Part shown: in pieces, positions 27,386 to 44,093 of the stretch
How the letters are laid out: each line of letters opens with the position of its first letter
How positions within the stretch are numbered: the first letter of the stretch is position 1
Source: Embleya scabrispora
Lineage (GTDB): Bacteria > Actinomycetota > Actinomycetes > Streptomycetales > Streptomycetaceae
DNA length: 64,000 nucleotides
Direction of reading: 5' to 3'
NCBI RefSeq assembly: GCF_002024165.1
Contig: NZ_MWQN01000001.1
Span: 2,604,001-2,668,000 of the forward strand
Notes under the pieces: model-generated
The model's database searches: none
What the model was told of the DNA's origin: nothing
What the model saw: only the letters and a program-made list of their open reading frames with translations
Made by a program: the position numbers and the translations under genes

Positions 27386-27442
27386 GTGGTGTGGCGGGTG
27401 TTGGGTTCGAACCAACGTAGGCGTACACCGGCAGATTTACAG
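27386..27442. repeat. Left attachment site (57-bp direct repeat, stranded tRNA-Tyr 3' half)
   Basis: Identical to 44037-44093. On the minus strand 27442-27392 reads from the anticodon loop (CTGTAAATC) to the discriminator of tRNA-Tyr, but the 5' half is missing, so this is not a functional tRNA. Similarity extends left through the terminator to give 101 matches over 108 bp (27335-27442 versus 43986-44093). Confidence 0.95.
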
Positions 27443-27544
27443 CGAGACCGACGAGTCGGGCCCACAAACGCTGTGGCCTGCACGCAAGAGCGTTACTTGG
27501 GAAATGAGGAGAGATCGTTCCACAAGGATTCCACGGATCGGGAT

Positions 27545-27573
27545 CTGACGGTGTCGGCTTCACCTCGTAGCCT
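27545..27573 (+). promoter_or_regulatory. Leaderless promoter of the restriction endonuclease gene
   Basis: CTGACG (27545-27550) and TAGCCT (27568-27573) are 17 bp apart. The -10 box ends 6 bases before the ATG and there is no ribosome-binding site, the usual layout of a leaderless actinobacterial mRNA. An identical TAGCCT-N6-ATG precedes the HD gene at 29808. Confidence 0.6.
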
Positions 27574-27579
27574 CTCCCC

Positions 27580-28935
27580 ATGACGATCGGTGATGCTGCC
27601 CATGGTCCGGACCCCGAGGCGAAGTCCACCAGCAAGTCGTTCCCTTGGATCCGCGAAGAGTTGATTCTTGCCTGTGAACTGTACTTCGATCATGGGTGCA
27701 AGCGGGTCGATCACAACGACCCCGGGGTGGCGGCGCTTTCGACTCTCCTCCGGTCTGCGAACTACCACACCGTGGACCTGTCCGACCACAGCTTCCGGAG
27801 CCACTTCAGCGTGTCCCGCAAGACTTCGGACCTGCACACCGCACATCCCGACTACCCCGCCGAGAAGAAGAGAAGCAACGGGGGTGAGCCCACGGCTCGC
27901 GTCGTCCGTGAGTTTCTCGCCGACGAAGCAGGCATGCGTGCGGAGGCAAAGCGGATCCGTTCGTCGCTGACAACCACCTTGCACGCCGCTCCTCTTCCAG
28001 CCAACCGCACGCTTCTGCAGATACAGAACATGCGCGTTCACCGCGCTGCGGGCATGCCCGCGAGCCTTCACAAGCCGATCGCCCTTCTGTGGGCACTCGG
28101 CCGCCTCGCACGCGGCGAGGTCCCCCAAGTGCGGTGGAAACAGTTCCGAGACGAAGTTGGGCCCCTGCTCGAGGTGTTCGGGCACGAGAGCTCCAAAGTC
28201 ACGCTGGAGAACCCGGTCTGGTACCTGCGCACCGACAAGATCTGGGAGGTCAACGGCCTCACAACTCCGGACGATCGGGCGCCCAGCGTCTCCAGGCTCG
28301 ACGCTGTCAATCCGATGGTCGGATTCACGACCGAAGCCGCGGCAGACTTGAGGAGGCCCGACATCCGAGCCGCCGCGGTCGGGTATCTGCTGCGCAGGTA
28401 CTTCTCCCATGCCGACCAAGACGCGCTGCTCGCGCGAACACGCATCGCCCCCGATGACGCAACGAACGTGGCAGACACCGAGGTTCGTATCCCTGGGCCC
28501 AGATCGACGGAGGGGGGCGTACCGCCCGGTCGAACAAGCTCGACGACGACCCGGTTCAAGCGCGACCCGGCATTCGTCCGCTACCTCAAGGGTCTCTACG
28601 ACGACAAGTGTCAGATCTGCAACTCACCCATGCGCAGCATCAATGGCGGGAGCAGGAGCGAAGGAGCGCACGTGCGCGCTCTGAAAGAGGGGGGTCCCGA
28701 CTCGATGGACAACCTCCTCGTATTGTGCGCCACCCACCACGTCGAGTTCGATGGTCTCGCCATCCACATCACTGATAGGGGTGACGTCATCACTACCGAC
28801 ACGGGGGAAGTCGAAGGTCACCTGACGTTCATGCCAGGTCACAGCGTGAACCTTGACCACCTTCGCTACCACCGAGCCCTCTGCGGCCGAGACGAACACC
28901 CCGATGTCCAGCGACGCCCCGGACAAGGGCAGTAG
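27580..28935 (+). CDS. Type IV HNH restriction endonuclease, predicted phosphorothioate-DNA sensor (ScoMcrA-like)
   Basis: A 451-residue protein. Residues about 20-90 are an N-terminal domain (WIREELILACELYFDHG, then LSTLLRSANYH). Residues about 150-300 contain RAAGMPASLHKPIALLWALGR and NPVWYLRTDKIWEV, which match the sulfur-binding domain of type IV enzymes that read phosphorothioate backbones. Residues about 345-392 form an HNH nuclease with a CQIC zinc pair, the AHV His, DNLLVLC Asn and the ATHH motif. It would cut incoming DNA with Dnd-type sulfur modification and may exclude competing plasmids or hosts. It sits at the attL end and is apparently expressed alone and leaderless. The sulfur-binding assignment is by eye. 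Confidence 0.78.
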   Translation: MTIGDAAHGPDPEAKSTSKSFPWIREELILACELYFDHGCKRVDHNDPGVAALSTLLRSANYHTVDLSDHSFRSHFSVSRKTSDLHTAHPDYPAEKKRSNGGEPTARVVREFLADEAGMRAEAKRIRSSLTTTLHAAPLPANRTLLQIQNMRVHRAAGMPASLHKPIALLWALGRLARGEVPQVRWKQFRDEVGPLLEVFGHESSKVTLENPVWYLRTDKIWEVNGLTTPDDRAPSVSRLDAVNPMVGFTTEAAADLRRPDIRAAAVGYLLRRYFSHADQDALLARTRIAPDDATNVADTEVRIPGPRSTEGGVPPGRTSSTTTRFKRDPAFVRYLKGLYDDKCQICNSPMRSINGGSRSEGAHVRALKEGGPDSMDNLLVLCATHHVEFDGLAIHITDRGDVITTDTGEVEGHLTFMPGHSVNLDHLRYHRALCGRDEHPDVQRRPGQGQ

Positions 28936-29307
28936 TAGCTCCGGAGCAACAGGGTCGAACCCGCGCCAGCGCGCGGGCCGGACCCATGACCAGGATCCAA
29001 CGCTCTGAGGCAGAGGTCTCGAACGGCGCCAATTGCGAGAGAGGTGGATCGCTGTGTCTGTAAAGTCGTAGCGTACATCTGAGATGTACGCTACGGACTG
29101 AGCTGTAGGTCCGGGGAGCACGAAGGTACCGCCCGGATTTGAAGCCAAAGACGAGACCCCGTGTGCAGCGCGCAGGGCCCTGGCGTCGCTGAACGCCAGG
29201 GCCATTGCCGTTGTAGAGGTCCCACATCACACGTAACGACGTGTAGACGCTGGTGCCCCACTTGCGAAGCGCCGCAGCGAGTATTTGCTCGAACGATGGG
29301 AGAACAG
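28936..29307. promoter_or_regulatory. Intergenic region upstream of the GntR gene with several palindromes
   Basis: No gene is supported in these 372 bp. They contain the large palindrome at 29067-29095, a 10-bp-stem hairpin at 29176-29203 (GGCCCTGGCG and CGCCAGGGCC) and a smaller palindrome ACACGT-AACG-ACGTGT at 29229-29244. The last is well placed as an operator for the GntR promoter. Confidence 0.5.
29067..29095. promoter_or_regulatory. 29-bp perfect palindrome, candidate regulator-binding site
   Basis: The arms CGTAGCGTACATC (29067-29079) and GATGTACGCTACG (29083-29095) are perfectly complementary around TGA. It lies 212 bp upstream of the GntR start and 131 bp after the HNH stop. A three-base centre suits a protein operator better than a terminator hairpin. 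Confidence 0.5.
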
Positions 29308-42449: not shown

Positions 42450-42468
42450 CTCCCATGAGGAAGTCAGC

Positions 42469-43848
42469 TTGCTCAAGCCATCCTTCAAGGTCCGCATCTG
42501 GGAACTCCGCGTCCACGAACGCGCCAAGGGGACGACGTACGAAGTCCGCTGGAAGGTCGGTGGCAATCCGTGCTCGAAGACCTTCAAGACCAAGGGGCTT
42601 GCGGACAACCGGCGTGCCGAACTCTTGAAGTTCATCCAGGACGGCACGGCCTTTGACGAGATCAGCGGGCTGCCGATGCCGGAGGCCCGCGCGCTGGACG
42701 ACGTCACCTGGTACACCCACGCACGCGACTACATCGAGATGAAGTGGGACGCCTCACCGGCCAAGACGCGGACGACGTTGGCGGATGCGCTCGCGACCGC
42801 GACGCCCGTTCTGGTGGCCCACGGTCGGCGCAAGCCGACGCCGGAAGCGCTTCGGCTCGCGCTCTACGGGTGGGCGTTCAACGTCAATCGCTGGGACGAG
42901 GAGGCGCCGCCAGAGGTGGTGGAAACGCTCCGGTGGGTCAAGAAGCACGCGCTTCCGATGAGCGCACTGGATGACGCCATCGTCATGCGGAAGGTGCTGG
43001 CCGCGTTCGGGAAGCGGCTCGACGGCGACGCGGCGGCCCCTTCAACGGTGCAGCGCAAGCGGGCCATCTTCCACAACGCCCTGGGCTTCGCTGTGGAGAC
43101 CCGCCGATTGACCGCCAACCCGCTCGGAACGGTCCAGTGGACTGCCCCGAAGGTCTCCGAGCAGGTAGAGCCGGAGAACGTGGTCAACCCGCGCCAAGCC
43201 GACGTGCTGCTTGATGCCGTATACGCCGAGAGTGCCCGCGGTCGGCACCTGGCCGCGTTCTTCGGCTGCATGTACCACGCCGGGATGCGTCCGGCCGAGG
43301 TCGTGTGGCTGATGCGTAAGGACTGTGTGCTGCCCAAGCGCGGGTGGGGCGTGCTGAAGCTGCGTGAGTCGCGTCCTCGGGTGGGGTCGGCCTGGACCGA
43401 CGACCGGAAGTCGCACGACAAGCGCTCGCTGAAGGGGCGGGCGAGGAAGGCGACACGCCCGGTGCCGATCCCGCCGGAGTTGGTGGCGATGCTCCGGTGG
43501 CACGTGTACGTCCACGGCACGGCCCCGGACGGACGGCTGTTCCGCACCGCCCGCGGTGGCATGGTCCAGGAGAGCGGGTACGGCGAGGTCTGGCGACGTG
43601 CCCGCGTGGCCGCGCTCAGCGCCGAACAGGTGGAATCCGCCCTCGCCAAGCGGCCCTACGACCTACGGCACGCCTGCGTGTCTCTGTGGCTGAATTCCGG
43701 TGTCGACCCGACGGAGGTGGCCCGCCGTGCCGGGCACAGCGTGAACGTGTTGCTGCGCGTGTACGCCAAGTGCCTGCCGGGCGTCGCCGAGCAGGCCAAC
43801 CGCAAGATCTCGGAGGCCATGAGGCAGTGGCGGGCCGACGGCTCGTGA
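42469..43848 (+). CDS. int: Tyrosine site-specific integrase
   Basis: A 459-residue tyrosine recombinase. It has a SAM-like core-binding domain in the N-terminal half and a catalytic domain with YHAGMRPAEVVWL (first Arg, near residue 268), RPVPIPPEL, PYDLRHACVSLWLNSGV (second Arg and His), RRAGHSVNVLLRVYAKCL (His and nucleophilic Tyr near residue 440). The first His of the H-x-x-R box is replaced by Tyr. It recombines attP with the 3' half of tRNA-Tyr, 190 bp away. The start is TTG with GAGGA 9 bases upstream; the nearby ATG at 42455 is out of frame. Confidence 0.93.
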   Translation: MLKPSFKVRIWELRVHERAKGTTYEVRWKVGGNPCSKTFKTKGLADNRRAELLKFIQDGTAFDEISGLPMPEARALDDVTWYTHARDYIEMKWDASPAKTRTTLADALATATPVLVAHGRRKPTPEALRLALYGWAFNVNRWDEEAPPEVVETLRWVKKHALPMSALDDAIVMRKVLAAFGKRLDGDAAAPSTVQRKRAIFHNALGFAVETRRLTANPLGTVQWTAPKVSEQVEPENVVNPRQADVLLDAVYAESARGRHLAAFFGCMYHAGMRPAEVVWLMRKDCVLPKRGWGVLKLRESRPRVGSAWTDDRKSHDKRSLKGRARKATRPVPIPPELVAMLRWHVYVHGTAPDGRLFRTARGGMVQESGYGEVWRRARVAALSAEQVESALAKRPYDLRHACVSLWLNSGVDPTEVARRAGHSVNVLLRVYAKCLPGVAEQANRKISEAMRQWRADGS

Positions 43849-43993
43849 GGCGGTCGGGGCGCCTGCGCGGGCCTGCGTCCGCCCGGCGACCGTTCCACGC
43901 ATGTTCCTCACCCGCTGATCCACACCCGAGATTTGGTGGGACAAGGTGAGACAAGCCACGCTTTTCGAGCATCCGCCTGTTTTCTCGAACGAA

Positions 43994-44033
43994 GAAGGCC
44001 CCTGACCAGCGTTTCCGCTGGTCAGGGGCCTTC
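43994..44033 (-). terminator. Terminator of tRNA-Tyr, supplied by the element
   Basis: A perfect 18-bp stem (43994-44011 with 44016-44033) and TTTC loop just 3' of tRNA-Tyr. It replaces the chromosomal terminator left behind at 27343-27382. The two hairpins differ by changes that keep pairing. Confidence 0.85.
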
Positions 44034-44036
44034 TCG

Positions 44037-44093
44037 GTGGTGTGGCGGGTGTTGGGTTCGAACCAACGTAGGCGTACACCGGCAGATTTACAG
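44037..44093. repeat. Right attachment site (57-bp direct repeat within tRNA-Tyr)
   Basis: Identical to 27386-27442. It covers tRNA-Tyr from the anticodon loop to the 3' end plus six bases, so the element restores a full tRNA on insertion. Confidence 0.95.

What the first reader, a model, noticed from the sequence alone, without database searches (positions are those of the whole stretch)
27386..44093. SLP1-like integrative conjugative element in tRNA-Tyr, with exact ends
A perfect 57-bp direct repeat (27386-27442, 44037-44093) marks attL and attR. The intact tRNA-Tyr lies at the int side and only its 3' half at the other end. All modules needed for integration, replication and transfer look intact, so the element may still be mobile. 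Chromosomal synteny and target tRNA match S. coelicolor SLP1 as I recall it.
Basis: partly seen in the sequence, partly recalled or inferred. Interest (0 to 1): 0.75.

Follow-up and report, generated by a model that had tools for sequence, protein, structure and literature searches.

The report
SLP1-type mobile element in tRNA-Tyr
This is an apparently complete 16.7-kb mobile DNA element of a well-known soil-bacterium type, sitting in a tRNA gene and carrying a probable restriction enzyme; it is largely ordinary, but comparing it with relatives points to where such elements probably start copying themselves.

Summary
A 57-bp perfect repeat (27386-27442, 44037-44093) flanks a 16,651-bp insertion, inside a 108-bp, 94% repeat that also covers a terminator-like hairpin. 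tRNA-Tyr is intact at the integrase side; only its 3' part is at the other end. The three other genomes held of the genus lack the element here. Its integrase family mostly sits beside tRNA-Tyr (25 of 29 loci). Int, Xis, Prim-Pol, RepPP-like ATPase, TraA and TraB genes are uninterrupted. It is a new member of a known kind.

Two further points. The gene nearest the distal att encodes an SBD-HNH restriction enzyme, probably sensing phosphorothioated DNA, the functional class of SLP1's ScoMcrA but without SRA. Between rep and xis lies a 269-bp dyad-symmetric array of 14 iterons. In relatives the repeat motif follows the Rep family, not the integrase, and a prediction noted beforehand held in two of two elements in which this integrase was not found. 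It is probably the replication origin, moving with rep. Iteron origins as such are known from plasmids.

The parts
27335..27442 (.). attL-side repeat: chromosomal tRNA-Tyr terminator remnant (27335-27385) plus 57-bp identity core (27386-27442) holding the 3' part of tRNA-Tyr
27580..28935 (+). SBD-HNH type IV restriction endonuclease (predicted phosphorothioate-dependent), cargo next to the distal att
   Evidence: NF045808 6e-27, below its cut-off; PADLOC mREase_IV 8e-14; PDB: ScoMcrA 5zmm 5e-14 over the SBD, TagI 6ghs 3e-22 over the HNH
29161..29817 (+). regulator with two GntR-type HTH domains (start uncertain)
   Evidence: PF00392, two stretches, 1e-23
29808..30368 (+). HD-domain phosphohydrolase (mdp of AICEs)
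   Evidence: PF01966 1e-11; mdp-nud-xre cluster in PMC3218068
30365..30886 (-). NUDIX hydrolase
   Evidence: PF00293 2e-22
30835..31776 (-). XRE-type regulator
   Evidence: HTH_3 1.5e-4, just below cut-off
32930..33421 (+). DUF6303 protein
   Evidence: PF19820 3e-33
33418..34365 (+). DUF2637-type protein (name from the annotation of a plasmid match)
   Evidence: 66-78% over 52-61% of its length in 4 of 34 loci; plasmid match annotated DUF2637
34765..35148 (+). TraA
   Evidence: NF041213 3e-27, above cut-off
35145..37256 (+). TraB, DNA translocase; Walker A-like GMTGAGKS read from the sequence
   Evidence: NF041214 1.5e-167 over residues 29-695 of 703, score below the equivalog cut-off
37268..37376 (.). 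candidate clt: four copies of TGCGCACACC (one inverted) just 3' of traB
   Evidence: one base from the pJV1 clt repeat quoted in PMC3583192
37269..37721 (+). DUF4031 protein (start uncertain, overlaps the clt candidate)
   Evidence: PF13223 5e-22
37813..38367 (+). RapZ C-terminal-domain protein
   Evidence: PF22740 6e-26
38364..38996 (+). small C5-cytosine-methyltransferase-like protein
   Evidence: aligned with 11 homologues: PC in 12 of 12, EN in 9 of 12; Pfam DNA_methylase only E 0.07
39205..40080 (+). Prim-Pol-type primase/polymerase
   Evidence: 52-55% to five relatives, all five of which match PF09250, best 6e-11; the window protein itself does not
40430..41986 (+). RepPP-like ATPase, presumed initiator/helicase
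   Evidence: invariant Walker A-type residues with nine relatives; no Pfam family above cut-off
41855..42123 (.). dyad-symmetric iteron array, candidate replication origin
41997..42398 (+). Xis (HTH_17); true start probably near 42219 (inference)
   Evidence: PF12728 6e-8 at residues 81-130; in 34 of 34 loci
42469..43848 (+). tyrosine integrase of the tRNA-Tyr family
   Evidence: PF00589 4e-7
43986..44093 (.). attR-side repeat: terminator-like hairpin inside the element (43986-44036) plus 57-bp core (44037-44093)
44042..44125 (-). tRNA-Tyr(gta), intact

Best explanation
An SLP1-type AICE. Its tyrosine integrase recombined a circular attP with the 3' half of tRNA-Tyr (attB); attP carries the tRNA 3' half and a terminator of its own, so the host tRNA stays whole (att anatomy shown; reaction inferred). 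Excision by Int plus Xis would give a 16,651-bp circle. The Prim-Pol and the RepPP-like ATPase would replicate it from the iteron array between rep and xis (inferred from covariation). TraB, binding clt repeats just 3' of its gene, would move double-stranded DNA to the mating partner (inferred from the family). GntR, XRE, HD and NUDIX proteins would hold transfer in check (inferred). The SBD-HNH enzyme next to the distal att would cut phosphorothioated DNA, as ScoMcrA does from SLP1 (inferred).
For: Att repeats and intact tRNA. Empty sites in 3 of 3 other genomes of the genus. Integrase relatives at E <= 1e-60 in 215 of 394 family genomes; tRNA-Tyr beside int in 25 of 29 best loci outside the genus and in 4 of 4 named-genome loci; a second copy of the tRNA 3' end 12.3-17.7 kb away in 11 of 34 stretches. 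Xis in 34 of 34 loci chosen by their integrase. TraA/TraB; Prim-Pol through relatives. GC 68.6% in the element, 72.7% in the flanks. Iteron covariation. No DndC match in the host genome, as expected beside an enzyme that cuts phosphorothioated DNA.
Against: No excision, transfer or expression evidence. TraB is below the NCBIfam equivalog cut-off and matches no Pfam family at E <= 0.1. The window's Prim-Pol and Rep match no Pfam model above cut-off. SLP1 DNA was not compared. The best integrase relative in the genomes searched is 67% identical, so recent movement is not shown. Five integrase loci in the genus, one of them a second element in the same genome, are not beside tRNA-Tyr.
Confidence: 0.92

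Rival explanations
1. A decayed element: it came in as an AICE but can no longer excise, replicate or transfer.
For: AICEs are prone to decay (PMC9513070, passages including part of the abstract). TraB is below the equivalog cut-off.
Against: Int, xis, prim-pol, rep, traA and traB are uninterrupted and near full length against family models or relatives; the 57-bp core is perfect.
Confidence: 0.2
2. The repeat array between rep and xis is not an origin but an operator or an accessory site controlling xis-int.
For: It ends about 100 bp before the probable xis start (start inferred).
Against: Its motif tracks the Rep family (correlation 0.65) and hardly the integrase (0.11); a matching motif follows rep in two elements in which this integrase was not found. 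A double role as origin and operator stays open.
Confidence: 0.2
3. The left-end endonuclease is an ordinary 5-methylcytosine type IV enzyme, not a phosphorothioate sensor.
For: Its HNH part is closest to TagI, a nuclease of modified cytosine. Two ScoMcrA pocket positions differ (Y164 to N, A168 to Y), and neither change was seen tested in the passages of PMC6224610; Y164I and A168I weaken binding there.
Against: It has an SBD-like domain (142-276) and only 67 residues between that and the HNH match, too few for an SRA. The histidine, a lysine for R117, and P165 are kept in the alignment; R117K keeps binding in ScoMcrA and Y164 and A168 vary among homologues (PMC6224610, passages).
Confidence: 0.15

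Closest known systems
SLP1 (Gi11) of Streptomyces coelicolor A3(2)
   Same: tRNA-Tyr target restored on integration, about 17 kb, long att repeat (112 bp reported), type IV phosphorothioate-sensing endonuclease near one end, Prim-Pol gene followed by a RepPP gene (PMC3009677 and PMC3218068, passages)
   Different: Host of another genus by my reading of the unnamed labels; the endonuclease lacks an SRA and aligns with ScoMcrA mainly in the SBD; DNA identity unknown because SLP1 was not reached
Replicon and clt of Streptomyces plasmid pWTY27
   Same: Predicted primase/polymerase RepB, a 522-aa RepA, an adjacent iteron of direct and inverted repeats bound by RepA, and clt repeats beside tra (PMC3583192, passages)
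   Different: Not compared by sequence; other repeat motifs; described as a plasmid
pSAM2-type AICEs
   Different: pSAM2 replicates with RepSA; here Prim-Pol plus a RepPP-like ATPase
SBD-HNH enzymes (SprMcrA, EcoWI)
   Same: SBD and HNH without SRA (PMC7461809, passages)
   Different: About 140 extra N-terminal residues, matched on their own in many other proteins

Membership tests
AICE | Integrase with flanking att repeats, usually in a tRNA 3' end | tested here: met
AICE | Replication module (RepSA, RepAM or Prim-Pol/RepPP) | tested here: met
   Prim-Pol homology through relatives; Rep assigned to RepPP by position and family alignment, not by a named model
AICE | Single FtsK/SpoIIIE-type translocase | tested here: met
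   NF041214 1.5e-167, though under the equivalog cut-off and with no Pfam match
AICE | Excision and conjugative transfer | not testable with these tools
   needs bench work
SLP1 subfamily | Integration in tRNA-Tyr | tested here: met
SLP1 subfamily | Integrase clusters with the SLP1 integrase | tested here: inconclusive
   its family is beside tRNA-Tyr in 25 of 29 loci; SLP1 Int itself was not available
SLP1 subfamily | Prim-Pol gene followed by an SCO4618-like RepPP gene | tested here: inconclusive
   arrangement met; SCO4618 sequence not available
SLP1 subfamily | Tra of the SLP1/pJV1 clade | tested here: inconclusive
   no tree with SLP1 or pJV1 Tra; candidate clt repeats are one base from the pJV1 repeat quoted in PMC3583192
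ScoMcrA (SBD-SRA-HNH) | SRA domain between SBD and HNH | tested here: not met
   67 residues between the two matches
SBD-HNH phosphorothioate-dependent endonucleases | SBD with H, R/K and P in the sulphur pocket, plus HNH | tested here: met
   by sequence only; activity not tested

The most novel reading that the evidence does not exclude
AICEs carry, between rep and xis, a Rep-specific iteron origin that travels with rep as a cassette across elements with different integrases and tRNA targets. Because it lies just upstream of xis-int, Rep binding there may also switch excision on or off, tying replication to excision. A dyad of tandem repeats spanning about 170-270 bp recurs in two unrelated Rep families: in the eight DUF3631/RepAM-cluster loci examined and in the window and three of ten RepPP loci (L060, L061, L069).
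Probability: 0.35. Interest if true: 0.55.

Novelty: new member of a known kind. Interest (0 to 1): 0.36.

Why it matters
As a single element it adds a complete-looking SLP1-type AICE, probably from a genus outside Streptomyces, usable as a test bed or vector. The comparison gives two testable statements about the class: where the origin of Prim-Pol/RepPP and RepAM elements lies and that it is exchanged together with rep; and that the end next to the distal att may be a slot for anti-phage or anti-modification genes.

Tried and rejected
Close DNA relatives on plasmids: none (best covers 4% of the query at 75%). Integrase on plasmids: 11 records, 4 covering at least 80%, these at 43-50% identity. 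Endonuclease on plasmids: 53 records, none covering 80%.

Idea that this SBD-HNH enzyme is typical cargo of tRNA-Tyr AICEs: rejected. 63 of 392 genomes have some match at E <= 1e-15; 22 rows cover SBD and HNH, one of them only in part. Of 20 neighbourhoods fetched (G227 was already held; G504 not fetched) one, G365, has a full relative of the integrase at the far end; G696 and G654 show partial or weaker ones; 7 have a tRNA-Arg in the stretch. With the ScoMcrA domain as query, 14 of 392 genomes match at E <= 1e-25, best 85%, so ScoMcrA itself was not in the sample. Of the 10 fetched, 8 have at least one AICE-type gene nearby; G082 has a 51% integrase and tRNA-Tyr about 14 kb from the domain, and G456 an integrase fragment beside tRNA-Tyr about 6 kb away.

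Distal-end slot as a defence hotspot: suggestive only. Of 11 elements with a distal att, 10 proteins from 8 were scanned (L064, L073, L074 not). Four elements show a known or candidate defence family: SoFic in L055, AbiU/AIPR in L068, ApeA in L070 (Pfam only), PDC-M36A in L078. L056 and L061 have NB-ARC/TPR proteins (PADLOC only a generic TPR model, in L061). L072 has a methyltransferase domain with a partial mad2 match (2e-16), and L076 nothing. Control: the largest coding-like ORF 5 kb further in, 10 of 11 scanned (L061 left out), gave two weak mad8 matches, best 4.5e-6; these slices hold mostly other modules, so the control is weak. Restriction-modification and AIPR cargo in AICEs is already in print (PMC9513070, passages).

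Structure prediction was not used. Solved-structure searches gave nothing useful for Rep (best E 0.4), Prim-Pol or TraB.
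Full report
Observation. The repeat is as described: 57 bp perfect at 27386-27442 and 44037-44093, inside a 108-bp stretch of 94% identity whose outer half is a terminator-like hairpin. Read by eye, the two hairpins differ at one pair changed on both sides, and the left copy has one mismatch. The tRNA-Tyr at 44042-44125 is intact. The spacing gives an element of 16,651 bp. In the window's own genome the stretch matches only these two places, apart from the hairpin on its own other strand.

Empty site. Three other genomes of the genus are held. In G002 the chromosome matches the window in order up to 27009 and resumes at the tRNA-Tyr side about 1.4 kb later; in G001 the left flank (to 27328) lies about 125 bp from the tRNA repeat; in G003 the flank (to 26972) lies about 1.1 kb from it. 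None has the element there. yajQ (DUF520) lies beside tRNA-Tyr in 10 of 10 genomes of eight genera searched, so the site is old and the element the newcomer.

Content. Left to right: SBD-HNH endonuclease, double GntR regulator, HD phosphohydrolase, NUDIX and XRE genes on the other strand, small genes including DUF6303 and a DUF2637-type protein, TraA, TraB, DUF4031, a RapZ C-terminal-domain protein, a small C5-methyltransferase-like protein, Prim-Pol, a RepPP-like ATPase, Xis and Int. HD-NUDIX-XRE is the mdp-nud-xre cluster of AICEs, and Prim-Pol plus RepPP is the SLP1 pair (PMC3218068, passages). The element has 68.6% GC, the flanks 72.7%.

Integrase family. 215 of 394 genomes of the family hold a relative at E <= 1e-60. 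Of 29 best loci outside the genus, 25 have tRNA-Tyr beside int; the four named-genome loci (three Streptomyces, one Micromonospora) all do; five further loci in the genus do not, two being near tRNA-Arg and one being a second element in the window's own genome. Across 34 stretches chosen by their integrase, Xis is in 34, TraB in 7, the RepPP-like ATPase in 10, Prim-Pol in 7, the methyltransferase in 11, the endonuclease in 1 (stretches are at most about 21 kb and some are cut, so these are lower bounds).

Origin candidate. Fourteen CGTCCG/CGGACG units lie between 41877 and 42101 (one more at 41843) in a mirror arrangement, inside a 46-nt inverted repeat spanning 269 bp. Twelve copies of an 8-mer, both strands, within 300 bp compare with at most 5 in 60 resamplings that keep dinucleotide frequencies. 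Of 34 regions upstream of xis (window plus 33 loci; L012 left out as too short), 26 have at least four copies of one 9-mer and 25 exceed all 100 of their own resamplings; 8 have three copies or fewer. All ten loci with a RepPP relative have five or more. Rep genes were picked by a script as the most coding-like ORF before int and clustered by BLAST. Among 25 arrays (L076 dropped as a near copy of L074; L064, which only equals its resamplings, kept) the motifs share 5.76 bases within a Rep cluster and 3.58 between (87 and 213 pairs), 0 of 10,000 label shuffles reaching the difference; with repeated motifs collapsed to 20 arrays it is 5.20 against 3.68, again 0 of 10,000. Correlation is 0.65 with Rep cluster and 0.11 with integrase identity. 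Pairs are not independent and the motif is simply the commonest 9-mer, so these figures are a guide.

A prediction noted beforehand was that RepPP elements without this integrase carry the GTGACGCAG-type repeat 3' of rep. L155 (an ORF that reads like another tyrosine integrase, not scanned, with tRNA-Thr beside it) has CTGCGTCAC six times; L150 (no match to this integrase in the 2.4 kb beyond rep) has the close CCGCGTCAC five times; the resampling maximum is 4 in each. The second Rep cluster with strong arrays is DUF3631/RepAM: the three of its eight members scanned match PF12307. Its inverted arms span 167-242 bp in the eight loci. Against a general rule of geometry: among the ten RepPP loci only L060 (269), L061 (234) and L069 (211 bp) show a wide dyad; L070 and L080 span 111-120 bp, and in five (L011, L056, L057, L068, L073) the best inverted repeat spans 39-53 bp. 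In pWTY27 RepA binds a comparable iteron in vitro (PMC3583192, passages). Library searches (20 of 445 listed) listed no paper whose title or abstract start describes iterons in AICEs, and the AICE survey PMC3218068 does not contain the word; subscription papers and the 2008 AICE review were not available.

Transfer-site candidate. Four TGCGCACACC copies (three direct, one inverted) lie at 37268-37376, directly after traB, and nowhere else in the window. PMC3583192 quotes the pJV1 clt repeat as CCGCACA[C/G][C/G], one base away; PMC3218068 puts pJV1 Tra in the SLP1 clade. Cautions: some 10-mer reached four copies within 120 bp in 1 of 60 resampled elements, and the looser pattern [C/G]CGCACA[C/G][C/G] occurs eight times in the element, four of them here. 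This is a lead only.

Cargo. The endonuclease has an SBD-like domain (142-276) and an HNH (344-397). In the alignment the histidine, a lysine for R117 and the proline of the ScoMcrA sulphur pocket are kept, while Y164 and A168 are N and Y; the paper reports R117K as harmless and the other two as variable (PMC6224610, passages). It lacks room for an SRA, which fits its sharing an element with a cytosine-C5-methyltransferase-like gene (inference). No DndC match was found in the host genome; other phosphorothioation genes were not searched.

Verdict. Shown: att structure, empty sites, gene content, covariation. Inferred: excision, replication from the array, transfer through clt, restriction of phosphorothioated DNA.

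Noticed in passing
window 26972-27344: G001, G002 and G003 have about 0.7-1.4 kb more between the NUDIX gene and tRNA-Tyr; in the window the start of another gene (P-loop-like N-terminus) seems fused to the NUDIX gene after a deletion next to attL.
   Followed up: partly
window 43948-43985: This stretch inside the element next to attR is also found beside the empty tRNA-Tyr of G002, as if an earlier element had left its arm there.
   Followed up: no
L081 (own genome C1:3215292-3235290), L082 (G003): A second element with a 56-57% integrase and xis lies in the same genome, and a similar one in G003, with no tRNA gene called within 1.5 kb of int.
   Followed up: partly
window 38364-38996: Small methyltransferase-like gene with C5-cytosine motifs and little room for a target-recognition domain, in 11 of 34 related stretches.
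   Followed up: partly
window 37813-38367: RapZ C-terminal domain without the rest of RapZ; matches on three Streptomyces plasmid records are annotated RNase adapter RapZ.
   Followed up: no
window 27580-28000: The N-terminal 140 residues of the endonuclease match on their own in many proteins of the compared genus.
   Followed up: no
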